Assembly (NCBI RefSeq): GCF_001411495.1
Contig: NZ_CP012984.1
Coordinates: 62,001 to 126,000 of the forward strand
Direction of reading: 5' to 3'
Origin: Burkholderia cepacia ATCC 25416
Lineage (GTDB): Bacteria; Pseudomonadota; Gammaproteobacteria; Burkholderiales; Burkholderiaceae
Length of the DNA stretch: 64,000 nucleotides
This document shows positions 24,788 through 41,754 of this stretch, one piece after another. Within the stretch, counting starts at the first letter, position 1. Each line of letters starts with the position of its first letter. The notes below the pieces were generated by a model. The model did not search any database, was not told the DNA's origin, and worked only from the letters and a program-made list of their open reading frames with translations. The position numbers and the translations under genes were made by a program.

Positions 24788-24822
24788 GGTTACTTTTCTT
24801 TGTCTTCCAAAGAAAAGTAACC
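24788..24822. repeat. Perfect 15-bp-arm inverted repeat between aceF and lpdA
   Basis: GGTTACTTTTCTTTG and CAAAGAAAAGTAACC are perfect arms around a 5-base loop. The sequence, with the following AAAAGAAAGGCGCGTCC block, resembles a dispersed intergenic repeat common in Burkholderia genomes. It may act as a transcript-stabilising hairpin or attenuator between E2 and E3 genes; it is A/T-rich in the stem and has no T-run beyond it. Confidence 0.75.
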
Positions 24823-24955
24823 AAAAGAAAGGCGCGTCCTTGGGCGGACAGCAAAGGTGGTTCTGCCCAGGTTCGCGTTCTCTTGTCAGGCCGTGGCCGG
24901 TTCATCGCGCGAGTTTCCATTCCCTCTCTCCGTAGCCAACAAGAAGGGGACGTAC

Positions 24956-26743: not shown

Positions 26744-26991
26744 TCGCCATCTCGGCTTGCGTGTCGCAAGTATGACGAGTTGCGGGTTTTCCCGAGCGTG
26801 CGGCGACAATGACCGTTTTTGGTGATAACTCGACTTTTTATCAGAATTTTCCGCGGAGCTGCCAGGCATAAACTTGTTCATCAGGTGATGTTGTTCGAAT
26901 GCCTGCTGGAGCGGAAATCGATGTTCTGCCGCGCAAGCGAGCGTTCGAACTTCAGGGCACCGGAGCCTTGTGCAAAGAGGAGACGCGGGCT

Positions 26992-27501
26992 ATGAACGTT
27001 GCGCTGGACAGGATAGACCTTAGCATCCTGAGTGAACTTCAGGAGGACTCAAGTTTGACGAATCTCGAACTGGCGGCTCGAGTCAACCTGTCGCCCTCTC
27101 CCTGTCTCGTCAGGGTCAGAAATCTGGAGCGTCTCGGTGTAATCAGCCGACGCGTCGCCGTGCTCAATGCGTCCCTGCTCGGCCTGGGCATCATGGCCAT
27201 CGTCGAGATCAGTCTGGAGCGGCAGGGCATGCAGGCGCGGGAGAGTTTTGCCGACACGGTCAGAGGCATCACCGAAGTCATGGACTGCTTCATGATGACC
27301 GGGCAAACCGACTATCTGCTGCGGGTGGTGGCGAGAGATCTCGTCGAACTCGAACACATCATCACGCACAAGCTGACGTCGCTTCCCGGTGTGGCCAGCG
27401 TTCGCTCGAACGTCGTCCTGAAACGGCTTGCCAACAAGACGACGCTTCCCATCGACAAGACGCGGCCTATCCAGATTCATGGACTGGCGCAGGCGTCGTG
27501 A
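26992..27501 (+). CDS. Lrp/AsnC-family transcriptional regulator
   Basis: A 169-residue regulator. The HTH is in LDRIDLSILSELQEDSSLTN, then LELAARVNLSPSPCLVRVRN; the C-terminal RAM (ligand-binding ferredoxin-like) domain spans GIMAIVEISL to VASVRSNVVLKRLANK. Lrp-type proteins sense amino or 2-oxo acids and form octamers. The ATG was preferred over an upstream frame start since the HTH then begins at residue 5; AGAGGAGA is upstream. It follows lpdA by about 250 bases and precedes the RibBA-like gene by 22, so it may control the PDH genes and be co-transcribed with ribB. Confidence 0.9.
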   Translation: MNVALDRIDLSILSELQEDSSLTNLELAARVNLSPSPCLVRVRNLERLGVISRRVAVLNASLLGLGIMAIVEISLERQGMQARESFADTVRGITEVMDCFMMTGQTDYLLRVVARDLVELEHIITHKLTSLPGVASVRSNVVLKRLANKTTLPIDKTRPIQIHGLAQAS

Positions 27502-27523
27502 TCACATCGCGTAAGGTGCTCTC

Positions 27524-28672
27524 ATGAGTAACGCAATGTCCGCCGGCCGGCCGGCAGATTCGCGCGCCGACATCGCAACGGCGTTGGAGATTATCGAAGA
27601 AGCGCGCGCCGGGCGGATGTTCATTCTGGTCGACGACGAGGACCGTGAGAACGAAGGCGACCTCGTCATTCCCGCGCAATTCGCCACGCCCGACGCCGTC
27701 AACTTCATGGCGACGCATGCGCGCGGCTTGATCTGTCTCGCGATGACTCGCTCGCGCTGCGAATCGCTGGGTTTGCATTTGATGAGCCGAATCAACGGTT
27801 CGCGGCACGAGACGGCCTTCACGGTGTCGATCGAGGCGCGTGACGGTGTGAGCACCGGCATCTCGGCGGCCGACCGCTCCCGCACGATTTCGCTGGCGAT
27901 CAATCCGGAAACGGGGCGAGACGAGCTCGTTTCTCCCGGACACGTCTTTCCGCTCATGGCGCGCGACGGCGGCACGCTCGTGCGCGCGGGCCACACCGAG
28001 GCGGCGGTAGATATCGCCCGGCTGGCCGGGCTCGCACCGGCCGGTGCGATCTGCGAAATCATGAACGACGACGGCACCATGGCGAGGCTGCCGGACCTCA
28101 TCGCCTTTTCACGGCGGCATCAGCTGAAGCTGGGCACGATCGCCGATCTCATCGCGTATCGCCGACGAACGGAACGGCTCGTCGAGGCCGTTGAACACGG
28201 GAGCTTCACCGAGCCGAATGGACGGCATTGGCGGATCGTGGTCTACCGGAACCGGATCGATCAGGTCGAGCATATCGCCTTCGTCATGGGCGATCTACGG
28301 GGCGCCGACCCCGTTCTCGTGCTCATGCATGCGATGGATACCATGAACGACGTCATCGGCGGTCACCACCTCGCGTCCCTGCGCGGCGCGGCGCGTTTGC
28401 TGGAGAACGAGAATCGCGGCGTCATCGTGGTGATCCGCGAATCCCGCCCGACGGCCGTGTCCGAGCGGGTGCGTGCCATGATGCATCCCAAGCCTGCCGA
28501 GCCGGAACTGCGCGATTACGGAATAGGCGCGCAAATTCTCACCGAACTCGGCGTGAAGAACATGATCCTGCTCTCCAATCATGAAAGAACGATCGTGGGC
28601 CTGGAGGGCTACGGTTTGAACATGGTCGAGCAGAGAAAAATAGAGCGAATTCACGACGATCAGGAAGTTTGA
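27524..28672 (+). CDS. RibBA-like DHBP synthase with degenerate cyclohydrolase II domain
   Basis: A 382-residue protein. Residues about 20-220 form an intact 3,4-dihydroxy-2-butanone-4-phosphate synthase: DDEDRENEGDLVIPA, HARGLICLAM, TGISAADRSRTI, SPGHVFPL and AGHTEAAVDI are all present. The C-terminal half is GTP-cyclohydrolase-II-like (RDYGIGAQILTELGV) but lacks the RCDCG-type zinc cysteines; where they belong the chain reads LMHAMDTMNDVIGGHH. It can supply the four-carbon precursor of riboflavin but probably not open GTP. It is likely a dedicated paralogue supplying flavin for the luciferase-like monooxygenase and flavin reductase further along the island. It starts 22 bases after the Lrp stop. 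Confidence 0.88.
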   Translation: MSNAMSAGRPADSRADIATALEIIEEARAGRMFILVDDEDRENEGDLVIPAQFATPDAVNFMATHARGLICLAMTRSRCESLGLHLMSRINGSRHETAFTVSIEARDGVSTGISAADRSRTISLAINPETGRDELVSPGHVFPLMARDGGTLVRAGHTEAAVDIARLAGLAPAGAICEIMNDDGTMARLPDLIAFSRRHQLKLGTIADLIAYRRRTERLVEAVEHGSFTEPNGRHWRIVVYRNRIDQVEHIAFVMGDLRGADPVLVLMHAMDTMNDVIGGHHLASLRGAARLLENENRGVIVVIRESRPTAVSERVRAMMHPKPAEPELRDYGIGAQILTELGVKNMILLSNHERTIVGLEGYGLNMVEQRKIERIHDDQEV

Positions 28673-28805
28673 CGCCATCCGGTCGCGCCGCCGTGCCGAT
28701 GCAGAAATCGGGTCGTCCCGTTCCGATCGCGGGAGCGTTGTTCCGGATGAAGTCGTGACGCTCATCGCAGGGCGTTTCGTGACCATAAAAGCAACTGGAG
28801 GAGAG

Positions 28806-28877
28806 ATGAGACACGCAGAAAACCCCGACATCGTCGGCGCGCGCGCGAGCGCCGTGGCCGCGGGGCGGCCCGCATGA
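28806..28877 (+). CDS. 23-codon leader peptide coupled to acyl-CoA ligase
   Basis: A short frame, MRHAENPDIVGARASAVAAG followed by RPA and stop, preceded by the strong ribosome site GGAGGAG. Its stop overlaps the ligase start as ATGA, the usual translational-coupling arrangement. The ligase ATG itself lacks a good Shine-Dalgarno sequence. The peptide is probably a translation leader rather than a functional protein. Confidence 0.5.
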   Translation: MRHAENPDIVGARASAVAAGRPA

Positions 28878-30511
28878 AAACGACGGCGGAAAATCCCTAT
28901 ACGATCGGACTCGAGCGCGACCCGGCGAACTTCATTGCCTTGTCGCCGCTGACGTTTCTCGAACGCGCCGCGTCCGTCTGGCCGGAGCGCACGGCCATCG
29001 TGCACGGCACGATACGCCGCGACTGGGCCGAAACCTACCGGCGGTGCCGGATGCTCGCCGGCGCGCTGCGCGGGCGCGGCATCGGCAACGGCGATACGGT
29101 GGCGATGATCGCGGCCAATACGCCCGAACTGTTCGAGGCACATTTCGGTGTACCGCTTTGCGGCGCTGTCCTGAACACCATCAACACACGGCTCGATGCC
29201 GACACGATCGCGTTCATTCTCGGCCACGGCGACGCGAAGCTGCTGATCACCGACCGCGAATTCTCCTCGACGGTGAAGAAGGCCCTGGCACGGCTCGGCC
29301 GCGCCATTCAGGTCATCGACATCGACGACCCACAGTTCGGAGAAGGCGATCTGCTCGGCGAAAAAGACTACGAGGCGTTGCTGCAGGAGGCCGCGCACAC
29401 AGAATTTTCTGTCGCGATGCCGGAAGACGAATGGCAGGCCATATCGCTGAACTACACATCCGGCACGACGGGCAATCCCAAGGGCGTCGTGTATCACCAT
29501 CGCGGCGCATATCTGAACGCAGTATCGAACGCACTATCGTGGCATCTGGACGAGGACACGACCTATCTATGGACCTTGCCGATGTTTCACTGCAATGGCT
29601 GGTGCTTTCCGTGGACCATGGCGTTGGTGGCCGGCACCAGTGTTTTTCTGCGCCATACGCGGGCCGAGCGGATTCTCGCCGCCATCCGCACCGAGGCGGT
29701 CACGCATTTTTGTGCGGCGTCCGTAGTGTTGAACATGATCAATAACGCCGCGCCGGAGCTGAAAGCCGGCATCCGTCATGGAGTCAAGGTCATGACCGGC
29801 GGTGCGCCGCCGCCCGCTTCGGTGATCGCCGGCATGGAGCGCATGGGCTGGGACGTGACGCACGCCTACGGGTTGACCGAGTCCTATGGGCCGGTCGTGC
29901 AATGCGTGTGGCGCGACTCGTGGAATGCACTCGATCTCGATGCGAAAGCGCGGCTCAAGGCCCGCCAGGGAGTGCGCGGCCCCGCTCTCGAGGCAGTGAT
30001 GGTAGCCAGCCCCGATACGCTGGAGCCTGTTCCAAAAGACGGGCAAACGCTCGGCGAGGTATTTCTGCGCGGCAACAACGTGATGAAGGGCTACCTGAAG
30101 AATTCGGACGCCACCGTGGAGGCATTTTCCGGCGGGTGGTTTCACACGGGCGATCTCGCGGTATGGCATCCCGATGGCTACCTGGAAATCAAGGATCGCT
30201 CGAAGGACATCATCATCTCGGGAGGCGAAAACATTTCGTCGATCGAGATCGAGGACATACTGTATTCCCATCCCGCCGTTCTGGAGGCGGCAATCGTCGC
30301 GCGTCCCGACGACAAGTGGGGCGAGACACCTTGTGCTTTCATCGCGCTCAAAGACGATTCGGCGGTGACCGAAGCGGACATCATCGCGTTTTGCCGCGAG
30401 CGGCTGGCACATTTCAAGGTGCCCAAGACCATCGTGTTCTCGCCGCTGCCGAAGACAGCGACCGGCAAGATCCAGAAGTTCCACTTGAGGGAGCGGGCGC
30501 GCCAGCTGTGA
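28874..30511 (+). CDS. AMP-dependent acyl-CoA ligase (medium-chain/DmdB-like)
   Basis: A 545-residue ANL-superfamily enzyme. The AMP/ATP P-loop is NYTSGTTGNPKGVVYHHRGA, the A5 motif THAYGLTESYGP, A7 WFHTGDLAVWHPDGYLEIKD, A8 RSKDIIISGGENIS, and the A10 Lys is in KTATGKIQKF. FHCNGWCFPW is characteristic of the branch holding medium-chain acyl-CoA and methylmercaptopropionyl-CoA ligases. It activates a carboxylic acid to its CoA thioester using ATP. It follows the leader peptide with a 4-base overlap. A second, structurally different ligase lies at 35370, so the island may activate two acids or two successive intermediates. Confidence 0.9.
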   Translation: MKTTAENPYTIGLERDPANFIALSPLTFLERAASVWPERTAIVHGTIRRDWAETYRRCRMLAGALRGRGIGNGDTVAMIAANTPELFEAHFGVPLCGAVLNTINTRLDADTIAFILGHGDAKLLITDREFSSTVKKALARLGRAIQVIDIDDPQFGEGDLLGEKDYEALLQEAAHTEFSVAMPEDEWQAISLNYTSGTTGNPKGVVYHHRGAYLNAVSNALSWHLDEDTTYLWTLPMFHCNGWCFPWTMALVAGTSVFLRHTRAERILAAIRTEAVTHFCAASVVLNMINNAAPELKAGIRHGVKVMTGGAPPPASVIAGMERMGWDVTHAYGLTESYGPVVQCVWRDSWNALDLDAKARLKARQGVRGPALEAVMVASPDTLEPVPKDGQTLGEVFLRGNNVMKGYLKNSDATVEAFSGGWFHTGDLAVWHPDGYLEIKDRSKDIIISGGENISSIEIEDILYSHPAVLEAAIVARPDDKWGETPCAFIALKDDSAVTEADIIAFCRERLAHFKVPKTIVFSPLPKTATGKIQKFHLRERARQL

Positions 30512-30548
30512 AAGGGGCGGCGGCGTAGCGCCAGCCGCCGCGTTTCGA

Positions 30549-31397
30549 TCAGCGCGAGGACGCCTCCTTCTGGTCCACGCGAAACTTGCCGGGACTTTGT
30601 CCCATGGTCTTCTTGAACATGGTGATGAACGAGTTCGGACCTTCATAGCCGAGCTCGAGCGCCACTGCGTGAACCGACGCGCCTGCCGACAATCGCTGAA
30701 GCGCAATGATGATATGCAGACGCTCGCGCCAGCGCCCGAAGGTCATGCCGGTTTCGCTGCGTACCAGCCGCGCGAGCGTACGTTCGCTCATCGCATATCG
30801 GCGCCCCCATTCCGCGATCGTGCTGCGGTCGGCGGGGTTGTCGAGCAACGCCGAAGCGATCTGTTGAAGCCGGGGATTGTCGGAGATCGGGAGAAAGACG
30901 TCGTCGGGCGCCAGCAGCGCGAGCTGATCCAGCAGCACTCTGGCGAGCCGGCCCACCGGGCCGTCCTTCGGATAGTCGGGCGGAAACCTGGCCAGTGAAC
31001 GGATCAACTCGCGGATGAGCGGCGTGATCGTAAAGCTGCGGCAGTCGGTGGGCAGGCCGGCCTCGTCGGGCGGAATGAAGATGACGTACAGCTTGGCGAA
31101 ATCGGAAGCATGATTGCTGTGCGGAATGCCGCCCGGAATCCACACCGCGCCGTTGGGCGGGACGATCCACCATCCGCTCGGCGATCGGCACATGACCGAC
31201 CCGCTCAATGCGACGACCAATTGCCCCTTGCGATGAACGTGCATCGGCAGCTCATCCTCTTTTCCGCTCGTCTCCAGGAGAACGGAAATGACCGGCAAAT
31301 CGACGGAGTCCGGATCGAACGGCTGATAGTTGATCTTCACCGGGTCTGTCATGGCTCGCGAAGCGGACATGCCGATTTCAGGATTGTTGGGTTCCAC
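30549..31397 (-). CDS. AraC-family regulator with N-terminal cupin
   Basis: A regulator of about 282 residues. The cupin region has PMHVHRKGQLVVALSGSVMC and WIVPPNGAVWIPGGIPHSNH; the HTH pair is IAEWGRRYAMSERTLARLVR and VHAVALELGYEGPNSFITMF, closing with KKTMGQSPGKF. It is a paralogue of the regulator at 19370. The longest frame starts at a GTG; internal Met codons at 31370 and 31352 are alternatives, none with a clear ribosome site. It is convergent with the ligase and divergent from the enoyl-CoA hydratase at 31589, which it probably activates together with the following genes to 37949. Confidence 0.88.
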   Translation of the reverse strand: MEPNNPEIGMSASRAMTDPVKINYQPFDPDSVDLPVISVLLETSGKEDELPMHVHRKGQLVVALSGSVMCRSPSGWWIVPPNGAVWIPGGIPHSNHASDFAKLYVIFIPPDEAGLPTDCRSFTITPLIRELIRSLARFPPDYPKDGPVGRLARVLLDQLALLAPDDVFLPISDNPRLQQIASALLDNPADRSTIAEWGRRYAMSERTLARLVRSETGMTFGRWRERLHIIIALQRLSAGASVHAVALELGYEGPNSFITMFKKTMGQSPGKFRVDQKEASSR

Positions 31398-31588
31398 GGT
31401 TCACTCGCTTTCTGCGCCTGCCTGGCCTCGGTGAATTCATGTATCGCCGCCCTCGGTGCAACATACGGTGGGCCATCCGACTGACGCGATTTTAATCCGC
31501 CGAATCAACGATGGCGCCGGCAAATCAAAATTAAATTTGGCCCCGTCGGACCTACACTGACTCGATGTAAATTCACGAGACATCAGGT

Positions 31589-32353
31589 ATGAAAACCGAC
31601 GAATTGATTTGCACACGGATCGACGCGGACGTCGTGCAACTGACGATCGACCGGCCGCCGGCGAACGCACTGAACGAACCGCTCATCACCGCATTGATGT
31701 CCGTCTTCCGCGACTTCGCTCGACACGACGTGCCACCCGGCATCGTGTTCACCGGGGCGGGAGAGAAGTTCTTTTGTGCCGGCGGCGATATCAATGAAGT
31801 GGCGGACCATGAGCTCGCCCTGTCGCGCATGGAAGCGTTCCACGCGTTCCTGGCGCAACTCGAGCAGTATCCGAGCCCGCTCGTGTGCGCGGTCAACGGC
31901 TATGCAGTGGGTGCCGGATTCGAAATGGCGCTGCATGCGGACTACGTCGTCGCGTCCGCTGAATCCCGGCTAGGATTTCCCGAGATCAATCACGGCCTGT
32001 TGCCCGCGGCAAAAGGCATGCGCCACGCAGCGGCCCTGCTGGGTCGGCGTGCCGCGCGTTCGCTGCTTTTCTCCGGTGAACTGATCACGGCCGGAGAAGC
32101 GTTGGCGATAGGCGCGGTGGACGCGATCTCCGCGCACGATGAAACGCTGAGAGACGCGCTGGCCAAATGCCGCGCGCTTTGCGCCAAAGATCGCCAGCTG
32201 TTCGCCGCCATCAAGCGAACGCTGCGCGAGAGTCCACGGATGAACGACGAAGCTCTGCTGCAGATGACGCTCGATGACCTGCGTGGATATCTCGGCAACG
32301 CGCGGACCGCGGACGCAAGATCCAGATTTCTGAACCGCAATAAGAAGGCCTGA
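31589..32353 (+). CDS. Enoyl-CoA hydratase/isomerase family protein
   Basis: A 254-residue crotonase. The CoA/oxyanion-hole loops are KFFCAGGDINEVAD and NGYAVGAGFEMALHADYVVA, where backbone NH groups stabilise the enolate; the usual catalytic Glu positions correspond to FPEINHGLLPA. It acts on CoA thioesters (hydration, isomerisation or retro-aldol cleavage). It is the first gene of an apparent operon running to 37949: the creatininase-like gene starts 2 bases after its stop. AT-rich sequence at 31490-31580 should hold the promoter controlled by the divergent AraC regulator. Confidence 0.88.
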   Translation: MKTDELICTRIDADVVQLTIDRPPANALNEPLITALMSVFRDFARHDVPPGIVFTGAGEKFFCAGGDINEVADHELALSRMEAFHAFLAQLEQYPSPLVCAVNGYAVGAGFEMALHADYVVASAESRLGFPEINHGLLPAAKGMRHAAALLGRRAARSLLFSGELITAGEALAIGAVDAISAHDETLRDALAKCRALCAKDRQLFAAIKRTLRESPRMNDEALLQMTLDDLRGYLGNARTADARSRFLNRNKKA

Positions 32354-32355
32354 TC

Positions 32356-33135
32356 GTGAGCAATCTCAAACTGCCGGAAACGCTGCATCTTGCGCGCATG
32401 ACGTATGAGGGCGTGGCGGCCGCATTGGCCACGCAGTTCGATCGCGTCATCATTCCTTGCGGCGCAATCGAGCAGCACGGCCCCCATCTGCCGCTGAGCA
32501 TGGATGCCGATCATGCTGACGCGCTGGCCGTGGAAATCGCCACGTTGCTGGGGCGAACCCTGATCGCGCCGACGATACGAGTGGGATGCTCGAAGCACCA
32601 CATGGCCTTCCCGGGCACGATCTCGTTGCAGGAGCACACGTATGCCGCGCTCTGCCACGATTACTGCGTGAGCCTCGCGGCACATGGATTCAAGTGCATC
32701 TATCTGTTCTCGGCGCATGTCGGTAACTTCAATGCCCTTCATGCGATGTTGCCGGAATTGCGACAGGCCGTCGGGCCAGACGTCCAGGTGCTTGCCTATA
32801 CGGATCATCAGGCGTGGCTGCGCGAATGGCGACTGGCCGTCGAGGAAGCCGGCGGCGATCCGGAATCCGTGGGCGGACACGCAGACATCGCCGAAACCTC
32901 CCTGATGATCCACCTTGATCCGGACAGTGTGCGACTCGCTCGACTCACGGCCGGCCACGTGGGCGCCATGACGACCGAGCAATTGAACCGGATGTGGAAG
33001 GAAGGCGTGGCGTCGATCTCCCGAAACGGCGTGCTGGGCGATGCGCGAGGATCGTCACGCGAGATCGGCGAGGCCTGTTTGCGTGCGACCGCGAGGCTTC
33101 TCGCGTCGGCATTTGCGGCCGAATCGTCGACCTAG
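32356..33135 (+). CDS. Creatininase-family amidohydrolase
   Basis: A 259-residue protein of the creatininase/FAPy-deformylase/MftE family. The metal motif IIPCGAIEQHGPHLPLSMDA (Glu, His, Asp ligands), SKHHMAFPGTISLQEH and GGHADIAETSLMI are conserved. The usual NGHGGN block reads SAHVGNFNAL, keeping His and Asn. Members hydrolyse cyclic or linear amides or trim peptides, using two divalent ions. The start is GTG two bases after the hydratase stop. Within a CoA-catabolism operon it may open a lactam or remove an amide; the substrate is unknown. Confidence 0.85.
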   Translation: MSNLKLPETLHLARMTYEGVAAALATQFDRVIIPCGAIEQHGPHLPLSMDADHADALAVEIATLLGRTLIAPTIRVGCSKHHMAFPGTISLQEHTYAALCHDYCVSLAAHGFKCIYLFSAHVGNFNALHAMLPELRQAVGPDVQVLAYTDHQAWLREWRLAVEEAGGDPESVGGHADIAETSLMIHLDPDSVRLARLTAGHVGAMTTEQLNRMWKEGVASISRNGVLGDARGSSREIGEACLRATARLLASAFAAESST

Positions 33136-33149
33136 AAAAAGACGGAGAG

Positions 33150-33169
33150 CCGGCAGCATGATCTGCCGG
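33150..33169 (+). terminator. Hairpin after creatininase gene
   Basis: CCGGCAG and CTGCCGG form a perfect 7-bp stem with a 6-base loop 15 bases past the stop codon. No T-run follows, so it may reduce rather than stop transcription into the monooxygenase gene 256 bases away. Confidence 0.4.
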
Positions 33170-33425
33170 TATCGGCAAGGTTGCGGCATGAAAAGAATAA
33201 AAAATGCTGCGGGATGTGCGGCAATATTTATTCACGGAAACAAAAGAGACATCAAGGCAGAAAAGGCATCCGGATGGATGAGTATCGCTATCCAATCTGG
33301 ATGGGCTGTTTCTAAATCAAGTTAAACGACGATGTTAATTGGTTGGCGGCGTGACACTGCCCGAACCTCGGCAGCCGTTCGCGCGCGCCGTGAATTTTCG
33401 AATTACGACTGTCAAGGAAAAGAAA

Positions 33426-34580
33426 ATGCCATTGAAATTCGGTTTTTGGTCCGAGCAGGAGACGCAGGTCGGGCATAGCTACTCGAACAGGCTTCGCGAG
33501 CTGGTTCGCGAAGCGCGCTTCGCCGAGCAAATGGGTTTCGACTTTGTTGCGTTGTCGGAGCAGCACTTTGCGCTTGGCGGCGTGTCGAGTTCGGCGCCTG
33601 AAGTGGTGTTCGGTTATCTCGCGGCCGTCACTTCGCGAATCAAGCTGCGTCCTGCCGTGGCGCTGATGCCGAAGGCCATCAATCACGCGCTGCGTACCGC
33701 GGAACGGCTGGCGGCCACCGACATCCTCTCCGAAGGCCGGATGGAGATGTATTGCGGGCGCGCGAACACGACGATCGCAATGCGCGCGTTCAACGTATCG
33801 CCGGAGGAAACCCTGCCGCAAATGGAAGAGGGCATGGCGCTGTTGCGCAAAGCGATGCGTGAGGACGTGTTCACCTTCGAGGGAAAGTATTACCAGGTGC
33901 CGCCCCGGTCGCTCGTGCCGAAGCCGTTGCAAAAACCGTATCCCGTCCTCGGCGTTGCAGCCACCAGTGCGAACAGCCATGCCTGGGCCGGCTCGGAAGG
34001 TCTCGCGGTGATGAGCCATGCGATTTATCAGGGATGGGAGAAACAGAAGGGGCTGCTGGACACCTACTGGAACAGCTGGAAGCGCGATGAGACCGGGCCG
34101 TTGCACAAGCCGCGCGCCGGCATGCCGATCTTCATCGGTATCGGCAAGACCGACCAGGAAGCGAAGGACATTTACGCCGGCGCGATCATGAACTATGCGC
34201 GCATCTCGACCGATGCGTATCCGCGGCTCGCCAAACTCGCCGACAACTACGCATACATGGCCGAAAGCGTGCCCGCGATGCAGCGCGCCGCCGAAGATTG
34301 GGACTACCTGCTGAACGAATCCGCCACCACGGTGTGCGGAAGCCCCGATACCGTCATCCGTCAGTTGGAGCAATACGAGAAGCTCGGAATCGACGAGGTG
34401 CTGCTGCATATCGACTCGGTGCCGCACGAGCAGATCATGTCGACGATCGACATGGTGGGCCGTTACGTGATTCCGCATTTCAACGATCGCAACAATATCG
34501 TCCGCCCGACCGACGAGTTGCTCGAGAAGATTCGCGCCATGCGTCCGCAGGCCGCCAACCCGAAGCAAAGTCAAGGATGA
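33426..34580 (+). CDS. Luciferase-like (LLM class) flavin-dependent monooxygenase
   Basis: A 384-residue (beta/alpha)8 protein of the bacterial-luciferase superfamily: MPLKFGFWSEQETQVGHSYS at the start, FAEQMGFDFVALSEQHFALG, RIKLRPAVALMPKAINHALR and LSEGRMEMYCGRANT are typical F420/FMN-dependent blocks. It would use reduced FMN and oxygen to hydroxylate, desulfonate or cleave its substrate. A flavin reductase at 37443 and a DHBP synthase at 27524 in the same island support FMN rather than F420. The ATG follows AAGGAAAAGAAA. The next gene begins 4 bases after its stop, so it is in one operon with the second hydratase and ligase. Confidence 0.88.
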   Translation: MPLKFGFWSEQETQVGHSYSNRLRELVREARFAEQMGFDFVALSEQHFALGGVSSSAPEVVFGYLAAVTSRIKLRPAVALMPKAINHALRTAERLAATDILSEGRMEMYCGRANTTIAMRAFNVSPEETLPQMEEGMALLRKAMREDVFTFEGKYYQVPPRSLVPKPLQKPYPVLGVAATSANSHAWAGSEGLAVMSHAIYQGWEKQKGLLDTYWNSWKRDETGPLHKPRAGMPIFIGIGKTDQEAKDIYAGAIMNYARISTDAYPRLAKLADNYAYMAESVPAMQRAAEDWDYLLNESATTVCGSPDTVIRQLEQYEKLGIDEVLLHIDSVPHEQIMSTIDMVGRYVIPHFNDRNNIVRPTDELLEKIRAMRPQAANPKQSQG

Positions 34581-34584
34581 ACCT

Positions 34585-35373
34585 ATGAATACGTCTTCGC
34601 GCTATCAGTATCTGAATGTCGAACAACGGTCCTCCGGTGTCGCGATCGTTACGATGAATCGCCCGGAAATCCTGAACGCCATCAATTGGGACATGCACGA
34701 CGAACTCGAACGGGTATTCGTCGAGCTGGATCACGACAAAGCGGTCAAGGCGATCGTGTTGACCGGCGCCGGTCGCGGGTTCTGCTCGGGCGGCGACCAG
34801 AAGTCGATCGACAACGGCAATATCCCGTCGGCGACGCGTGGTGGCCGTCACCTCATAAGAAACATGCTGGAGGTCGAGGTGCCGATCGTGGCGGCGGTCA
34901 ATGGCGTGGCCGTGGGCCTGGGCGCGACGCTCGCGCTGTTCTGCGACATGATTTATGCGAGCCCGACCGCACGGTTCGCCGATACGCACGTCAATGCCGG
35001 TGTCGTCGCGGGCGACGGCGGTGCGGTGATCTGGCCGCTTCTGCTCGGGCCGGTCCGCGCGCGGCACTATCTGATGACGGGCGACTTCGTCAGCGCGGAG
35101 GAAGCGCTGACGATGGGGATGATCAACAAGATCGTCGAAAGCGACAAGCTGCTGGAGGCGGCGATCGATTACGCGGAACTGCTCGCGAGCGGCCCGCGCG
35201 ACGCGATCGTCTGGACGAAGTACTGCGTCAACAAGCTCGTCAAGCAGAATGCCCATCTGCTTCTCGACACGTCGATCGCTCTGGAGACGATCACGTTCAA
35301 TTCCCCCGAGCGCCGCGAAGCGGTGGCTTCGTTTACCGAAAGGCGCAAGCGCTTTGGAGACAACTGGAAATGA
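34585..35373 (+). CDS. Enoyl-CoA hydratase/isomerase family protein
   Basis: A 262-residue crotonase distinct from the one at 31589. Oxyanion-hole loops: GRGFCSGGDQKSIDN and AVNGVAVGLGATLALFCDMI; THVNAGVVAGDGGAVIWPLL is the segment holding the acidic residue. It acts on CoA esters. It starts 4 bases after the monooxygenase and ends overlapping the ligase start (ATGA), so all three are translationally coupled. This tight packing makes it likely that the CoA ester made by the adjacent ligase is its substrate. Confidence 0.9.
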   Translation: MNTSSRYQYLNVEQRSSGVAIVTMNRPEILNAINWDMHDELERVFVELDHDKAVKAIVLTGAGRGFCSGGDQKSIDNGNIPSATRGGRHLIRNMLEVEVPIVAAVNGVAVGLGATLALFCDMIYASPTARFADTHVNAGVVAGDGGAVIWPLLLGPVRARHYLMTGDFVSAEEALTMGMINKIVESDKLLEAAIDYAELLASGPRDAIVWTKYCVNKLVKQNAHLLLDTSIALETITFNSPERREAVASFTERRKRFGDNWK

Positions 35374-37277
35374 GCGCGGCACCGTGGACTTCCGGCAATC
35401 AATTCGCGACCACCACCATTCCGGCCTTGCTGATCGAGCGCGTGAAGAACGACGCCGACGCAAACGCGTTCTTTCAGAGGCGTGCCGGAGCGTGGGTGCC
35501 CACCACCTGGAAGGGCTATGCGAACGCAGTCTGTTCCGTATCCGCAGCCCTCGGCGCGGCCGGTGTCGCACGAGGCGATCGGATTGCCATCATGGGCGAC
35601 GTATCGCAGGAGTGGCTGATTGCCGACATGGCGACGATCTGCTCGGGCGCGGTGACGGTAGGCGTCTATTTCACCGCGTCGGTCGAAGAGGTGCGCTACT
35701 ACCTGGAGGATTCAGGGGCGACACTCGCTTTTGCCGGAAGTGCCGAACAGCTTCGGGTCATGAAAGCGGCCGATACGTCCAGCCGGCTCCTCAAGATCGT
35801 GGTGCTCGATCCGGACTGGAAGCGCTCGCCTGACGAAACCGGCATGAATGTCGTTTCACTCGCCGAGTTCGCGTCGCATTTTGACGGCGACGAAGTCGCT
35901 TATCTGCGTGAGCAGTCAGAGCTTGCGCGGCCGACGGACCTGGTGAGCCTGGGTTACACCTCGGGAACCACGGGGGCGCCGAAAGGCGCGATGCTGACGC
36001 ACGTGTCGATGCTCGCGGGCGCGTTCACGTGGCCGACCTTCTGTCCGGCGATATTGTCCGAACCGCAGCGCATGGTGATCCATCTGCCGCTTTCGCACAC
36101 GGTCGCGCGCATTCAGGCGACGACGCTGCCGTTGATCGCGAAGACGGTACCTTACTTCGTCGACGTGTCGGCCGATTTCGCGAAGTGCATTCAGGAAGTC
36201 AGACCGACGTCCTATATGGCGCCGCCGCGCTTCTATCAGAAGTTCGCGACCCAGATCATCAACCACGTGAACGGCAGCAGCGAAGCCGAGCGGAGAAACT
36301 ACACGCTCGCGCTCGGCATCGCGCGGGAAGTGCTGGCCGATCGCCAGGATGCAGGCACGGGCGACCCGTTCAAGGAACAGCTCTACGCCATCTGCCGTGA
36401 GCACGTGTTCAAGCCGTTGCTGGCCAGAATCGGCTTCGACGATTTGCGCTATCCGTACACGGCCTCCGCTCCGGTGCCGCCCGAGGTCGTCACGCTGTTT
36501 CAGTTGTGGGGCGTCAACCTGAAAGAGAATTACGGGCAAACGGAGATGGTCGGCGGCAACCTCGCGCAGGTGACCGACTGGTCGAGGCCCGGCAACTCCG
36601 GCGTCCCGCTCGACGACCCCGCCTGGGAAACCCGCGTGTTGCCGGACGGCGAAATGATCGTTCGGGGGCCGGGGCTGTTCATCGGCTACTGGAACAAGGA
36701 AGCCGAAACGAAGGCCGCGCTGCGGGACGGCTGGCTGTACACCGGCGATATCGTCGACGTCGGCGCGGACGGGTCGTACAAGCTGATCGATCGAAAGAAG
36801 GAGCTCATCAATACGGCCGCCGGCAAATCGATCAGCCCGGTGCAGGTCGAAAACGAACTGCGCCAGAGTCCGTACATTACCGAGGCACTCGTGATCGGCG
36901 AAGGGCGCAAGTATCTGACGGCGTTGATCGAAGTCGACGGCACGCTCGCCATGGACTGGGCCAGGACGCACGACCCGTCGGTCACGCAGTACGCCGATCT
37001 GGCCAGTTCGCAGCCCGTTATCGACCTGATCCGTGAAGAAGTGGAAAAGGCAAATGCGAGGTTGGCGCGCGCGGAGCAGATCAAGGCGTTCAGGATATTC
37101 CCCGAGGAACTCACACCGGAAAACGGCGTGATGACCGCCACGCGCAAGAAACGCCGCAAGGCATTGATGGCACGCTACGCGCACATTATTGCCGGCCTTT
37201 ACGACGATGCCGAAGAGCAGTTGATCAAGGAGCAGCTCGTCGGTTCAGGGACAGCAGCGTCCGTTCACCGGCAATAG
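35370..37277 (+). CDS. Long-chain-type AMP-dependent acyl-CoA synthetase
   Basis: A 635-residue ANL enzyme of the long-chain fatty acyl-CoA synthetase (FAA1/FadD15) branch. P-loop SLGYTSGTTGAPKGAMLTHV, then ENYGQTEMVGGN, YTGDIVDVGADGSYKLIDRK and KELINTAAGKSISPVQVENE. The MAPPRFYQKF helix is typical of this branch. It converts a long or bulky acid to its CoA ester. Its ATG overlaps the preceding stop by four bases. It differs in class from the ligase at 28874. The C-terminal region includes TRKKRRKALMARYAHIIAGL, rather than the usual final Lys motif TxxxK, though a basic residue may substitute. Confidence 0.9.
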   Translation: MSAAPWTSGNQFATTTIPALLIERVKNDADANAFFQRRAGAWVPTTWKGYANAVCSVSAALGAAGVARGDRIAIMGDVSQEWLIADMATICSGAVTVGVYFTASVEEVRYYLEDSGATLAFAGSAEQLRVMKAADTSSRLLKIVVLDPDWKRSPDETGMNVVSLAEFASHFDGDEVAYLREQSELARPTDLVSLGYTSGTTGAPKGAMLTHVSMLAGAFTWPTFCPAILSEPQRMVIHLPLSHTVARIQATTLPLIAKTVPYFVDVSADFAKCIQEVRPTSYMAPPRFYQKFATQIINHVNGSSEAERRNYTLALGIAREVLADRQDAGTGDPFKEQLYAICREHVFKPLLARIGFDDLRYPYTASAPVPPEVVTLFQLWGVNLKENYGQTEMVGGNLAQVTDWSRPGNSGVPLDDPAWETRVLPDGEMIVRGPGLFIGYWNKEAETKAALRDGWLYTGDIVDVGADGSYKLIDRKKELINTAAGKSISPVQVENELRQSPYITEALVIGEGRKYLTALIEVDGTLAMDWARTHDPSVTQYADLASSQPVIDLIREEVEKANARLARAEQIKAFRIFPEELTPENGVMTATRKKRRKALMARYAHIIAGLYDDAEEQLIKEQLVGSGTAASVHRQ

Positions 37278-37442
37278 GAATCGCCGGCAGCGCAATTGGC
37301 CACGAGAACCCGTCGACGGTGCGGCGTGGGTGATGAACGGTGCAACGCCACGGGTACTTCACCACGCATGCTTCATGCAAGGACCCGTGGCGCGCCGCCA
37401 CGAAGCCGCACCGCCGTTCCGTCCACCGAGAGAGGTACCGCC

Positions 37443-37949
37443 GTGATAGCACTTTCCCCCGACCGCACGACCTTCCGCGAAGCCATGTCCCGTATCGGCG
37501 CAGCGGTGAATATCATCACCACCACGACACCTTCCGGCGATGTCGGCATGACGGTGTCCGCGGTGTGCTCCGTCACCGACGATCCTGCTACGGTGCTCGT
37601 TTGCATAGACCGGTCCAGCCGTCAATATGGACACTTCAGCAAGGCGGGCATCATCTGCGTCAACGTTCTTTCCCATGAGCACGAGATGCTTGCACCGATC
37701 TTCGCGGGCAAGGGCGATGTCCAGATGACCGAGCGCTTCACGTACGGCGAGTGGATCCGTCTCGTCACGGGTGCGCCGGTGCTGGCCACAGCGGCCGCGA
37801 GTCTCGACTGCACGGTGGACCGGAGCATCGACATCGGCACACATACGGTCTTTTTCTGCGCCGTGCAGGCGCTACATCTCGGCTCCGCGTGTACGGGCCT
37901 CGTCTATCACGGGCGCGCTTATCATCGGCTGCCGCAGCAGCATGCGTGA
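37443..37949 (+). CDS. Flavin reductase (HpaC/FRP-like)
   Basis: A 168-residue flavin-reductase-like protein: FREAMSRIGAAVNIITTTTP, GDVGMTVSAVCSVTDDPATV, SRQYGHFSKAGIICVNVLSH and LDCTVDRSIDIGTHTVFFCA are the standard blocks, where the conserved SV/T and NVL residues bind FMN. It uses NAD(P)H to produce free FMNH2 for a monooxygenase partner, here most simply the luciferase-like enzyme at 33426. The start is a GTG with GAGAGG seven bases upstream. It lies 165 bases after the ligase and is the last gene of the island before the transposon. Confidence 0.9.
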   Translation: MIALSPDRTTFREAMSRIGAAVNIITTTTPSGDVGMTVSAVCSVTDDPATVLVCIDRSSRQYGHFSKAGIICVNVLSHEHEMLAPIFAGKGDVQMTERFTYGEWIRLVTGAPVLATAAASLDCTVDRSIDIGTHTVFFCAVQALHLGSACTGLVYHGRAYHRLPQQHA

Positions 37950-38162
37950 CACGGCGCGGCCGTTCCCCAGCGACCACAAGGCCAGGCCGATTGTTGCCGT
38001 TCGAAGTTTCTGCTGACAGTGTCCGCCGATACTGCTGATGGGTGCGTTTGCGGTGGCGTAGTCAGCAAAGGACGAGAGCTACACCGGGACGATGGAAGTC
38101 GATGGTGGGCTGCCCCGGCGTTATACAAATAGCCGGTCTTCCGATGTAGAGCGATGACCTGG

Positions 38163-38355
38163 TGTAGGCGTTCATTATTAGCGCTAGCCGTGTTCAGAAA
38201 CGTTGCTAGCGGAAATTCTCAAAGAAGCCTCGGCGAACAGGGACTTTTTGAAGCTTTCTGGCGGCTGCTTAGCCGTTGCGTTTCTGCAACGGAAACTTGG
38301 CCAATGTTCACTAACGTTGCTAGCACGTTGCACGTGTTCTTTAATACTGCTAGCG
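38163..38355 (+). repeat. Left-end transposase-binding repeats (four)
   Basis: Four direct copies of a 20-bp motif, at 38170-38189, 38192-38211, 38306-38325 and 38336-38355. Examples are GTTCAGAAACGTTGCTAGCG and GTTCACTAACGTTGCTAGCA. The first starts 7 bases from the TGTAG terminus. Two closely spaced pairs are separated by about 95 bases. This matches the multi-site ends used by TnsB-type transposases. Confidence 0.8.
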
Positions 38356-38385
38356 CACGTGTCGCGTGGATTGATAGGGATCCAT

Positions 38386-40002
38386 ATGGCTTCGATCGAA
38401 GAGCGGGCCGCTCGAGCAGCGAAGATTGCGTCCGTGCTTCGACCGCTTGGCAACGGCGTGCTTTCCCGACAGCAGGCTGAACGAGCAGCACAGCTATTAG
38501 GCGTTCACTGCACCACCGTATATCGCCTGCGTCGACGTTTCCTCGCAGATCCGGTCGCCAGCACATTAGAGCCAAGGCAGCCGGGTAGGGCGACCGGGGG
38601 CAGACTGGACGCCGCCGTCGAATGCGTCATCGACGAGGCCGTGCACGAATGGCTCCCTGATCAGCGACACCTTGCGCATCCTGCAACTGATCTTGTACTT
38701 GAGGTGAAACGTCGCTGCAGCGTTGCAGGTCTATCGCCTCCAAGCAGGTCAACAATTGCTCGACGGTGGCTCTCCTATCGCGAGCAGGATGCTTTGGCAC
38801 GAGCTGCGCTCCCGAACGCTGCAGTTGCCCCTGGCACATTCCAGGTCCGACATCCGTTAGATATCGTGCAGGTTGATCACACGCAAGCGGACATCCTGCT
38901 CGTTAGCGAACTGGACGGACAGATTATCGGTCGACCGTGGCTGTCTGTGGCTCTCGACGTTGCTACGAGATGTGTGCTTGGCTTTTATGTCGCAATGGAG
39001 AGGCCGGGGGCTGCGACGGTAAGCTTGCTCCTCTCGCGCGTAGTTCTGCGCAAAGAGCCGTGGCTCGAAAGACTAGGCGTTGAGGCTGACTGGCCGATGC
39101 GCGGTATCCCTCGAACGCTGCATCTTGATAACGCGGCCGAATTCAAAAGCCGTGCCCTTCGCAGTGGATGCCGCGAGTACGGCATTGAACTGATGTACCG
39201 ACCGGTGGGCAAGCCGCACTTTGGTGGCCACATCGAGCGGCTGAACAGGACCTTGATGGAGCGCGTACGTGGCCTCCCTGGTTCGACTGGATCGTCAGTC
39301 AAAGGGCGCAAGGCGCGCCAGGCCGAAAAGACAGCTTCGCTTACGTTGAAGCAGTTCGAGCAGTGGCTGGCTGTCGAGATCGGTAGGCGTTATCACTGCG
39401 GCCCCCACCGCGGTTTGTTGGGACTTCAGCCCGCGCAAAAGTGGCAGGAAACATGGCGAGCAGCGGATTCACGATGCTTGCCAGCTCAACCGGATGCCGA
39501 ACTGAAGTTTCTGATCCGGTTCCTGCCAGTCGCATCCCGGACCATTCAGCGGGACGGCCTCAAGCTCTTCCTGATCCGCTATTGGCATCCCTTGTTCGCG
39601 GCATGGCGGGAAACACGCCGGTCCGTGACGGTCCGCTATCACCCAGAAGACCTCTCGCGCATCTTCGTAAGCGCTGGCAGAGGCAGTTTCGTTGAAGTGC
39701 GATACGCGGACTTGCGTCGGCCTCCCATCTCGCTGTTCGAACAGCGAGCAGCTTTGCGAGCTATCCGGGCTAGGGGACAACGGGCAGTATCGGAGAGGGA
39801 GATATTCGAGACTGTTGAGCAGCAGCGACAACTGGTCGTCACTTCCCAGCGGGCTACTCGAGCGCGACGCCGCATGGCACGTCAAGCTGGCGGTTTGGTT
39901 CCGAAGAGCAGCATCGAAGATCTCTCACTCACTGAACAGCGGCAGGTCGAGCAGGTAAACTACGACGCACCAGTTACCGCGTATGACGTTGAACAGTGGT
40001 AG
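38386..40002 (+). CDS. tniA: TniA/TnsB-type DDE transposase
   Basis: A 538-residue Mu/TnsB-class transposase. The N-terminal 60 residues hold an HTH (AERAAQLLGVHCTTVYRLRR), a second HTH-like region spans 100-130, and the RNase-H catalytic core has Asp164 in DIVQVDHTQAD, Asp248 in RTLHLDNAAEF and Glu284 in GHIERLNRTLME, giving DD(35)E spacing. A Mu C-terminal beta-barrel and a basic tail follow. It binds the end repeats and performs strand transfer. The ATG at 38386 follows ATAGGGATCC and lies just inside the innermost left repeat; a longer frame upstream would run through the repeats. TniB starts 9 bases downstream. Confidence 0.93.
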   Translation: MASIEERAARAAKIASVLRPLGNGVLSRQQAERAAQLLGVHCTTVYRLRRRFLADPVASTLEPRQPGRATGGRLDAAVECVIDEAVHEWLPDQRHLAHPATDLVLEVKRRCSVAGLSPPSRSTIARRWLSYREQDALARAALPNAAVAPGTFQVRHPLDIVQVDHTQADILLVSELDGQIIGRPWLSVALDVATRCVLGFYVAMERPGAATVSLLLSRVVLRKEPWLERLGVEADWPMRGIPRTLHLDNAAEFKSRALRSGCREYGIELMYRPVGKPHFGGHIERLNRTLMERVRGLPGSTGSSVKGRKARQAEKTASLTLKQFEQWLAVEIGRRYHCGPHRGLLGLQPAQKWQETWRAADSRCLPAQPDAELKFLIRFLPVASRTIQRDGLKLFLIRYWHPLFAAWRETRRSVTVRYHPEDLSRIFVSAGRGSFVEVRYADLRRPPISLFEQRAALRAIRARGQRAVSEREIFETVEQQRQLVVTSQRATRARRRMARQAGGLVPKSSIEDLSLTEQRQVEQVNYDAPVTAYDVEQW

Positions 40003-40011
40003 GGGGCCAGC

Positions 40012-40881
40012 ATGAAGCAAGATGATTTCGCGCATCTGCTACCCGCAGCAAGAGATCAGGTCCTACTCGGAAAAGAGGATCGCATAAAGAGTCTGCTACG
40101 TGACCGGTGGATCGACTATCCCCGAGCGACTGAAGCCTTACAGCTACTGCAGCGGCTCTATGACACGCCGAGACGTGAGCGCATGCCGTGTCTTCTGCTG
40201 CACGGCGACTCGAACATCGGGAAAACCAAGATAACGGCCAAGTTCAGGCGAGCGCACCCCAGCGAGTTCGACGAGAGAACCGGGGTAGAGCGGTGTCCGG
40301 TCGTGAGCGTACAGATGCCTCCCACCCCCGATCAGCACCGCTTTTACGCCGCCTTGCTCTTTGAGCTCGGTGCGCCACATAACCCCGCTGCAGGGCTTGC
40401 CACACTCGAGCGGCTCGCTCGCGACATCTTGCGGCGGATGTCGCCGCAGATGCTAATCGTAGACGAGGTCCATCACCTGCTCGCCGGAACCTACCGTGAG
40501 CAACGCGCCTCTTTGAACCTTCTAAAATACCGAGCCAACGACCTGCAGATTAGCATGGTCCTTGTCGGTACGCGCGATGCCGTTCTAGGGCTTCAGACCG
40601 ATTCACAGATGATCAGCCGCTACAGACCATTCGAGATCCCAAGGTGGAGGGAAAGTGAAAGTCTTCGCAGGCTCATGGCTGCGTTCGAGAAAGTCTTGCC
40701 GCTACGAAAACCATCGAATCTGTCGCGACGTGAGATTGTCCAGCTCGTTCTCGAGATAAGCGGAGGGCTGACTGGCGCCATATCTACGATCCTCAACGAA
40801 GCAGCAGAGTTGGCGATCAGGAACGGTGACGAGTGCATCGATATCGCTCACCTAGAACGAGTTGCCCGCGCGTATGTCTGA
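40012..40881 (+). CDS. tniB: TniB/TnsC-type AAA+ transposition regulator
   Basis: A 289-residue ATPase. Walker A GDSNIGKTK lies at residues 65-73, Walker B MLIVDEVHHLL near 147-157, and the sensor strand MVLVGTRDA follows; RYRPFEIPRW carries likely Arg fingers. TniB/TnsC proteins polymerise on DNA with ATP, link the target selector TniQ to the transposase and enforce target immunity. The length (289) is close to type V-K TnsC (about 276) and shorter than Tn7 TnsC (about 555). The ATG follows AGGGGGCCAGC. Its end overlaps the TniQ start by eight bases. Confidence 0.92.
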   Translation: MKQDDFAHLLPAARDQVLLGKEDRIKSLLRDRWIDYPRATEALQLLQRLYDTPRRERMPCLLLHGDSNIGKTKITAKFRRAHPSEFDERTGVERCPVVSVQMPPTPDQHRFYAALLFELGAPHNPAAGLATLERLARDILRRMSPQMLIVDEVHHLLAGTYREQRASLNLLKYRANDLQISMVLVGTRDAVLGLQTDSQMISRYRPFEIPRWRESESLRRLMAAFEKVLPLRKPSNLSRREIVQLVLEISGGLTGAISTILNEAAELAIRNGDECIDIAHLERVARAYV

Positions 40882-41386
40882 CACCCACCGGCCGTGGCCC
40901 ATCGCACCTCGCCCCTTCCTGGAAGAGGCGTTTGGTAGCTGGTTGGGTCGAATCGCGGCGCGGTATCAGACGAGCGTAGACCTGATCTGGGAATCGGGCA
41001 CAGGCGTAGCGATGCCTAGCCTGACCAAGGCCGGCTGGATCCTCTTTCCCCCAGTTCCATCCGCAACTCTGAGCCGTCTATCTCGCGTAGCGCGGCTCAA
41101 CGATGGCATTCTGAGCATGATCCAGACGCCGCATGAGTGGGTCTTCGACCAGAAGTACTTGGTGTATTGCTTCAGATGTCTTGTTCTGAACGACGCCGAT
41201 GTCACTGCATCACGGTGGAAGAGGGAGTGGCTCGATCCGTCAGCCGACTACTGCCGGGTGCACCACAGCCTGCTCGAGACTGTTCCGCAATCGATTTTCG
41301 CCAGAGCTCCGAATTTCGACGCCGCGCTGCGGGCGATATCACGTTATCGATGCCCACCGCTTAGGCTGAGCAAAACACTACGCTAG
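40874..41386 (+). CDS. tniQ: Short TniQ-family target-selection protein
   Basis: A 170-residue TniQ protein. The N-terminus matches the family (PIAPRPFLEEAFGSWLGRIA), and a zinc site is formed by Cys99 and Cys102 (YCFRC) with Cys127 and His130 (DYCRVHH). Tn5053 TniQ is about 405 residues and Tn7 TnsD about 508; only CRISPR-associated type V-K TniQ is as short as this. The stop codon lies inside the first right-end repeat, so the gene cannot have been longer in this element. It should choose the target with TniB; which DNA or protein it reads is unknown. The ATG at 40874 overlaps the TniB stop region; a TTG 12 bases earlier is possible. Confidence 0.85.
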   Translation: MSDTHRPWPIAPRPFLEEAFGSWLGRIAARYQTSVDLIWESGTGVAMPSLTKAGWILFPPVPSATLSRLSRVARLNDGILSMIQTPHEWVFDQKYLVYCFRCLVLNDADVTASRWKREWLDPSADYCRVHHSLLETVPQSIFARAPNFDAALRAISRYRCPPLRLSKTLR

Positions 41387-41450
41387 CAGTATTAGTGAAC
41401 ATTGCTAGCACTACTTTGGGCACGGCTAGCATTGATTGTGAACTGCTACA
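41381..41450 (-). repeat. Right-end transposase-binding repeats (three)
   Basis: Three inverted copies relative to the left end, at 41381-41400, 41403-41422 (weakest) and 41424-41443; reverse-complemented, the first is GTTCACTAATACTGCTAGCG. The outermost lies 7 bases from the terminal TGTAG, exactly as at the left end. They are packed at 21-23 bp intervals, so left and right ends differ in spacing, as in Tn7. Confidence 0.8.
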
Positions 41451-41754
41451 CGAGCTGGCCGTGCCCGGCTTGCGCATCGGATTCAAATTCCGGTGGACCG
41501 CCCTCGGTGGTGGTGTAGCGACCGAGGCGAAAATCACGCAGCAAGCCCGCATGACGATCACGCCCGACCTGCCGCTGCCGTTTGACGCGCAAGCCGCCGC
41601 AAAGATCGGCGGATTGGTTATTGTGATCTCAGGCGCCTCTTGTCGTCATGCTCACTTTCGCACTGGGCGGCTGTTGAAATTCGGAGCGGTGACCTGGCCC
41701 ACTCGATCAATCGCGCTGGCTGCGCGTTTTAGGTAGCATGCCGTGGAAGCAATG
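41451..41754. other. Right flank of transposon, no recognised gene
   Basis: About 300 bases between the transposon and the tautomerase terminator. Both strands have open frames (for example minus-strand LRDFRLGRYTTTEGGPPEFE) that look more protein-like than random, so this may be the end of a gene broken by the transposon or an older event. No family was recognised. Confidence 0.4.

What the first reader, a model, noticed from the sequence alone, without database searches (positions are those of the whole stretch)
38163..41450. Cargo-free Tn7/Tn5053-like transposon with a CAST-sized TniQ but no CRISPR
Sequence shows TniA (538 aa, DD35E), TniB (289 aa) and TniQ (170 aa) in one tight operon between matched end-repeat arrays. 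Known Tn5053/Tn402 elements carry a TniQ of about 405 aa plus the resolvase TniR; Tn7 TnsD is larger. Type V-K CASTs have TnsB, TnsC and TniQ of about 584, 276 and 167 aa. Here the sizes match the V-K core without Cas12k, guide RNA or resolvase. Inference: this may be a free-living relative of the CAST core whose short TniQ chooses targets by an unknown route, and a minimal autonomous transposition unit.
Basis: partly seen in the sequence, partly recalled or inferred. Interest (0 to 1): 0.8.

Follow-up and report, generated by a model that had tools for sequence, protein, structure and literature searches.

The report
Minimal Tn5053-like transposon without resolvase
A 3.3-kb bacterial jumping gene that carries only its three movement proteins, with no cargo and no clean-up enzyme, recurs across Burkholderia relatives, and none of the copies examined has the matching short repeats that a clean insertion leaves, so it probably fuses or rearranges DNA when it moves.

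Summary
It is not a deletion derivative: 29 distinct copies, nearly all from Burkholderiales, are 3259-3299 bp (search limited to 3250-3330). TniQ resembles V-K CAST TniQ by profile (E 8e-6) and by fold, but TniA groups with Tn402 and Azospirillum; the CAST-like size looks like parallel reduction. In 0 of 32 copies do the two 5-bp flanks match, although left and right flanks share one 5-bp target preference (GCWGC); within a copy they are no more alike than random pairs (P=0.32). Best reading: replicative transposition whose products (fusions, adjacent deletions, inversions) persist, plus homologous recombination between copies, shown once. Against tying this to the missing resolvase: complete resolvase-bearing Tn5053-type controls matched in only 1 of 6. 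New variant of a known kind.

The parts
38158..38162 (.). left 5-bp flank CCTGG (target half-site; no match on the right)
38163..38385 (+). left end: terminal TGTAGGCGTTCA and four repeat (putative TniA-binding) sites; no gene
38386..40002 (+). tniA, 538-aa DDE transposase (TnsB homologue), D164/D248/E284
40012..40881 (+). tniB, 289-aa AAA+ ATPase (TnsC homologue)
40874..41386 (+). tniQ, 170 aa, only the N-terminal helical and zinc-ribbon part of TniQ (C99, C102, C127, H130 invariant in the 33 aligned members)
41382..41450 (-). right end: two repeat sites (41382-41400, 41425-41443), terminal CTACA; the first overlaps the tniQ 3' end
41451..41455 (.). right 5-bp flank CGAGC; from here on the sequence is uninterrupted in genome G031 (98.9% over 4.8 kb)

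Best explanation
The element is an insertion-sequence-like offshoot of the Tn5053 lineage reduced to TniA-TniB-TniQ. TniA nicks both ends and joins them to a target cut with a 5-bp stagger at GCWGC-like sites; TniB with a TniQ stripped to its core loads the complex without a specific address. There is no TnsA to free the second strands, so transposition is replicative, and its lasting products are replicon fusions, adjacent deletions or inversions. Each copy then carries half of one target duplication on each side. Homologous recombination between copies shuffles flanks further. Shown: gene content, ends, cargo-free size, shared 5-bp preference, mismatched flanks, one recombination event. Inferred: the replicative chemistry, what TniQ does, the relative share of the two routes, and whether the missing resolvase matters.
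For: No tnsA, resolvase or cargo inside 29 distinct copies of 3259-3299 bp (search limited to 3250-3330 bp); the four longer loci looked at hold an insert with an IS-type transposase frame (L030 by Pfam; L015, L018, L155 by eye). 0 of 32 copies have matching 5-bp flanks. Left and right flanks independently show the same motif confined to 5 bp (right 5-mers score 1.79 under the left matrix, the highest of 295 control offsets -1.6). Mean within-copy match 2.16 of 5, random pairing 2.07, P=0.32. The window's right flank is uninterrupted in G031 with a different left neighbour, which is absent from the window's genome apart from short 65-81% matches. The B. arboris copy's right end abuts the interior of a gene intact in B. 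anthina, and the other half is missing from that B. arboris record. Copies 99.5% identical in two Cupriavidus plasmids have no duplication either. Among Tn5053-type controls, which also lack TnsA, complete elements match in 1 of 6 and incomplete ones in 3 of 4, as if working elements disturb their own flanks; the numbers are small. TnsA-less V-K elements form cointegrates (PMC11406308 and PMC9527255, passages read).
Against: The lack of duplications is not tied to the missing resolvase: complete resolvase-bearing controls match in 1 of 6, and 0 of 32 against 1 of 6 gives P=0.16; against all 10 controls (4 matching) P=0.002. No reciprocal pair of copies with swapped 5-bp flanks was found within one genome. 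The window/B. arboris difference is recombination, not transposition. A passage of PMC9527255 says that in E. coli only 20% of V-K insertion products are cointegrates. No activity was tested.
Confidence: 0.5

Rival explanations
1. Copies insert cleanly with 5-bp duplications (cointegrates resolved by host RecA or a resolvase in trans), and the flanks are scrambled later by homologous recombination between copies or remnants in different places.
For: Window and B. arboris copies are identical over the first 2266 alignment columns and differ at 26 places in the last 1020, with 19.1 kb of near-identical left flank: a crossover inside the element. L027/L219 (93.3% identical) also have few differences in the first third (22 of 219). 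The window's own plasmid holds at least three remnants that could recombine. PMC8649781 section 11 (read) suggests RecA or trans resolution for such elements.
Against: Of 398 genomes 24 hold a full-length TniQ copy and only 3 of these more than one (at most 8 candidates scored per genome, so lower bounds), yet 0 of 32 copies keep a duplication. In the other pairs above 97% identity I see no comparable one-sided block by eye, though pHG1/P-10 has 7 of its 16 differences in the first tenth.
Confidence: 0.36
2. A free-living close relative, even the ancestor, of the V-K CAST core whose short TniQ uses an unknown guide.
For: TniQ profile and fold hit V-K TniQ first; PADLOC V-K TnsB 9.8e-35 and V-K TnsC 2.5e-14; same sizes.
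Against: TniA tree and bit scores place it with Tn402 and Azospirillum, V-K outside (99.2/100); no Rfam match or notable fold; no common target beyond 5 bp seen.
Confidence: 0.07
3. A decayed or deletion derivative of a cargo-bearing Tn5053 transposon.
For: The same plasmid holds truncated copies.
Against: Same length and gene set in 29 copies, 27 of them with a tniA frame of at least 523 codons stop to stop; TniQ short in all 28 full-length copies.
Confidence: 0.03

Closest known systems
Tn5053/Tn402 family (Tn402 of R751 as reference)
   Same: TniA-TniB-TniQ order; TniA 311.9 bits, TniB 227.2 bits; TGT...ACA ends; no TnsA; flanks often unmatched too
   Different: TniQ 170 aa against 405 aa; no TniR, no cargo; no sign seen of res-site targeting
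Type V-K CAST core (ShCAST)
   Same: TnsB/TnsC/TniQ of similar size, neither TnsA nor resolvase; TniQ limited to the same N-terminal part (PMC10293859 passages)
   Different: No CRISPR part; TniA lies on the Tn402/Azospirillum side of the tree
Tn5469 (Tolypothrix/Fremyella), as described in passages of PMC11406308; original paper not held
   Same: No cargo, one TniQ, apparently unspecific targets
   Different: A Tolypothrix PCC 7601 locus found here (L161; whether it is Tn5469 was not established) encodes TnsA and a very distant TnsB (46 bits)
IS26/IS6-type replicative elements (recalled, no call)
   Same: Cointegrate-type products and frequent lack of matching duplications
   Different: Unrelated gene set; three proteins here

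Membership tests
Tn5053/Tn402 family | TniA and TniB nearest to Tn5053-type proteins | tested here: met
   among the references used
Tn5053/Tn402 family | TniQ of about 405 aa with a C-terminal part | tested here: not met
   170 aa; the profile matches only the N-terminal part of Tn402 and Azospirillum TniQ
Tn5053/Tn402 family | TniR resolvase and res site | tested here: not met
   no room for TniR in the element; constant length in 29 copies; a res site was not searched for
Tn5053/Tn402 family | 5-bp target duplication | tested here: inconclusive
   5-bp motif on both sides but 0 of 32 matching; Tn5053-type controls 4 of 10, complete ones 1 of 6
Tn5053/Tn402 family | insertion at plasmid res sites | tested here: inconclusive
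   no serine resolvase gene annotated beside the copies in the 16 annotated loci (one search had no annotation); integrase or tyrosine recombinase genes lie near 3 of them (L069, L071, L072); res sequences not searched
Type V-K CAST | Cas12k and guide/tracr RNA in the element | tested here: not met
   whole genome not searched for Cas12k
Type V-K CAST | TnsB, TnsC and short TniQ without TnsA | tested here: met
Type V-K CAST | TnsB within the V-K clade | tested here: not met
   one V-K sequence only, its aligned part
Tn7 proper | TnsA endonuclease | tested here: not met
   no further gene fits in the element

The most novel reading that the evidence does not exclude
A core-only TniQ works without any DNA-binding partner or guide, so that TniA-TniB-TniQ is a complete sequence-permissive machine, and it lives in nature almost wholly as unresolved products: a replicon-fusing and rearranging element that shows what a V-K-like core does without Cas12k and what becomes of TnsA-less transposition when nothing tidies up.
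Probability: 0.35. Interest if true: 0.75.

Novelty: new variant of a known kind. Interest (0 to 1): 0.48.

Why it matters
[quoted passage not shown] This family offers a natural counterpart: a similarly reduced gene set, no CRISPR, and dozens of copies whose flanks record the outcome. Both questions become testable with a small three-gene system.

Tried and rejected
Cargo hidden by wrong ends: rejected; identity between copies stops at the ends, and the four longer loci looked at (L015, L018, L030, L155) hold an insert with an IS-type transposase frame, in L155 at the right tip. Of 36 loci whose ends the first search missed (duplicates that I had marked left out), 28 have a right end at the normal distance from tniQ (counted by eye; some partial); the others are cut, diverged or unclear.

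The window/B. arboris pair was first taken as an adjacent rearrangement by transposition; the distribution of differences showed homologous recombination, and I changed the reading.

Missing duplications as a consequence of the missing resolvase: weakened on recheck. My first control (3 of 9) had left out one pair (G123) and had not checked which controls hold a resolvase; with both done it is 4 of 10 overall and 1 of 6 for complete TniA-B-Q-R elements.

Reciprocal flank pairs: equal 5-mers occur across copies (10 pairings), none within one genome. Four searches with flanks of L008, L060 and L061 gave no informative uninterrupted site. B. arboris did not reach the left junction of the B. anthina copy.

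Structured RNA: nothing. A V-K reference set for a fuller tree was not available; one V-K and one other CAST-type TnsB were used.

Dropped before counts: seven duplicate loci (L058, L223, L230, L234, L237, L238, L239). L155 was left out of the flank count because its right end was not settled; L074 (3247 bp, flanks GAGGA/GGTGC) fell outside the length limit. Window and L062 share a left flank, so the 32 are not fully independent. The controls include three copies from one genome and one fragment pair of 378 bp; of 27 repeat places, eight are in no pair and were not used.
Full report
What is there. The window element spans 38163-41450 and has 3288 bp. It holds tniA (538 aa), tniB (289 aa) and tniQ (170 aa) in one operon, with six repeat sites near its ends. 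The window is G000:C4:62001-126000 of an 8.6-Mb genome in four contigs; C4 has 209,807 bp, and 14,127 bp around the element are identical to a plasmid of Burkholderia cepacia ATCC 25416.

The ends are real. Copies 97-99% identical at unrelated sites align with the window from 38163 to 41450, give or take a few chance bases. A second clade gives the same picture: the element of Cupriavidus necator pHG1 (3273 bp) and that of Cupriavidus sp. P-10 are 99.5% identical and sit in different surroundings.

It is a family, not a fragment. A search with TniQ gave 90 proteins at E<=0.001 (only proteins of 0.55-1.75 times the query length are considered); 33 chosen members share 15 invariant residues, among them R13, P14, F15, W23, G25, C99, C102, C127 and H130. 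In 398 Burkholderiaceae genomes 44 have a match at E<=1e-15, in 5 of 25 genera (at most 8 candidates scored per genome). By my reading of that table 24 genomes hold a stop-free copy covering at least 155 of 175 model positions, 28 copies in all, with stop-to-stop frames of at most 266 aa; three genomes hold more than one. In 399 genomes across the order only 2 matched, the window's own and one of its genus, though contig scans and plasmids show members in Caldimonas, Azohydromonas, Variovorax and Aquincola. Both ends were located in 36 loci, 29 distinct copies after dropping seven duplicates; they are 3259-3299 bp long and come from Burkholderiaceae, one Burkholderiales metagenome bin and one unplaced betaproteobacterial bin (L036, L040). 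That search accepted only 3250-3330 bp, so I also looked for displaced ends: the four longer loci carry an IS-type insert. In 27 of 29 copies the tniA frame has at least 523 codons stop to stop; in L156 and L218 it is broken.

TniQ. The profile of the family hits V-K CAST TniQ first among solved structures (7n6i, E 8e-6, positions 8-137 on 6-128) and Tn7 TnsD weakly (E 0.005); the single window sequence found no V-K TniQ. The predicted structure (mean pLDDT 89.2, pTM 0.85) has V-K TniQ chains as its five best matches, at modest significance (Foldseek best E 1.7e-3, none at 0.001 or below; TM about 0.55). Against the long TniQ of Azospirillum (443 aa) and Tn402 (405 aa) the profile matches significantly only in the N-terminal part. 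PMC10293859 (passages read) says that V-K TniQ has only the first helical domain and the zinc finger, while the other TniQ/TnsD compared there share a further domain. This family would be another such case, without CRISPR.

Kinship. phmmer scores of TniA are 356.5 bits with Azospirillum, 311.9 with Tn402, 69.8 with Tn552 and 122.6 with ShCAST TnsB; TniB gives 232.4 and 227.2 with the first two, 49.4 with VchTnsC and 47.7 with ShTnsC. In an unrooted tree of 20 sequences and 335 columns the 14 element TniAs are set apart from all others with 100/100 support, and V-K lies beyond a branch of 99.2/100 that separates it from Azospirillum, Tn402 and the elements. Only one V-K sequence was available, cut to its aligned part. 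So the V-K-like sizes are best explained by parallel reduction. PMC8649781 (passages) puts Tn5053 and V-K in one broad clade of transposases, which fits a distant common origin.

Flanks. None of 32 copies (29 plus L011, L015 and L030) has equal 5-bp flanks; in the 36 loci no duplication of 3 to 9 bp touches the ends (2 bp: 7 of 36). Yet the 5 bases left of the left end and the 5 right of the right end have the same composition: C at position 2 (18 and 19 of 29), A or T at 3 (25 and 24), G at 4 (21 and 21), C or G at 5 (24 and 21). Right 5-mers score 1.79 under the left matrix, against at most -1.6 at 295 control offsets, and left 5-mers 2.16 under the right matrix, against at most -0.63. Within a copy the two 5-mers agree at 2.16 of 5 positions, random pairing gives 2.07 (P=0.32). 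Each end therefore seems to mark a genuine 5-bp target event, but the two ends of one copy come from different events.

Support from surroundings. The window's right flank (41451 onward, 4.8 kb, 98.9%) is uninterrupted in genome G031, which has no copy; its left neighbour there is not the window's left flank and is absent from the window's genome apart from short matches. The window's left flank is native elsewhere up to 38005 (94.7% in G002). The B. arboris copy's right end abuts the interior of a fasciclin-domain gene that is intact in B. anthina, and the other half of that locus is missing from that B. arboris record; other records of that strain were not searched.

Results against a purely transpositional reading. 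Window and B. arboris share 19.1 kb of left flank at 99.98% and an identical first two thirds of the element, then differ at 26 places towards its right end. That is a crossover between two copies, so recombination does swap flanks. As a control I took inverted pairs of the Tn5053-type 25-bp repeat from the same 398 genomes (14 have a match), nine pairs, and Tn402 of R751. Matching 5-mers: 4 of 10. Six of the ten hold TniA, TniB, TniQ and TniR (five by tblastn; R751 by annotation), and of these only 1 matches; of the four incomplete ones 3 match. The element family differs from all ten (P=0.002) but not from the six complete ones (P=0.16). So missing duplications are common among complete TnsA-less elements of this lineage and cannot be put down to the missing resolvase. 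That incomplete controls keep their duplications more often hints that working elements disturb their own flanks. No pair of reciprocal junctions was found. A passage of PMC9527255 gives only 20% cointegrates among V-K products in E. coli.

How it most likely works. Without TnsA the second strands stay joined to the donor, and replication gives a cointegrate (PMC11406308, PMC9527255: passages read). Within one replicon the same chemistry yields deletions or inversions next to the element, which no resolvase would undo (recalled). A single remaining copy with unlike flanks is what such deletions leave. TniQ probably loads TniB near any acceptable site; this is inference.

Literature. Searches for TniQ with TniA/TniB/Burkholderia, Tn5053 and CRISPR-associated transposon, cointegrate/resolvase/TnsA, tniABQ (15 of 22 listed), target site duplication, pHG1/TniB (8 of 52 listed), Cupriavidus and V-K/ancestor listed no paper whose title or abstract start describes this family. 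Most subscription papers are not in the library, and only the passages and the one section named above were read. PMC8649781 section 11 (read) already notes that some TnsA-less transposons lack a resolvase, so the gene-content gap is known in general. What is added here is the delimited family, its core-only TniQ without CRISPR, and the record of its flanks.

Noticed in passing
L182:943-2040 (+), L173:1496-2518 (-), L174:1105-2052 (+), L183:1401-2246 (-): Cupriavidus genomes carry separate open frames made of two tandem copies of the TniA DNA-binding region without the catalytic domain (281-365 aa, the shortest cut at its start; 69-83% alike; six database clusters P0155-P0160 of 292-374 aa). 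They could be domesticated end-binding repressors or immunity factors.
   Followed up: partly
L281-L289 and R751 (L252): Among Tn5053-type elements and repeat pairs, complete ones rarely (1 of 6) and incomplete ones mostly (3 of 4) keep matching 5-bp flanks; if this held in a large set, it would show that active TnsA-less elements scramble their own flanks.
   Followed up: partly
G000:C4:42214-45333 (outside the window): A derivative with both ends and most of the interior missing (element position 445 joined to 3042), itself split by an insertion with an 8-bp overlap; possibly non-autonomous.
   Followed up: partly
G000:C4:135853-136439 and 161084-162804 (outside the window): Two further 5' fragments on the same contig, the second split by an insertion with a 9-bp overlap.
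   Followed up: no
window 38006-38162: A 157-bp mosaic between the native left flank and the element, including what looks like the end of a short-chain dehydrogenase gene (read by eye), pointing to earlier rearrangements.
   Followed up: no
window 19058-38162: A stretch with catabolic genes, among them a flavin reductase domain frame at 37296-37949 (Pfam 1.1e-36), shared at 99.98% with B. arboris.
   Followed up: no
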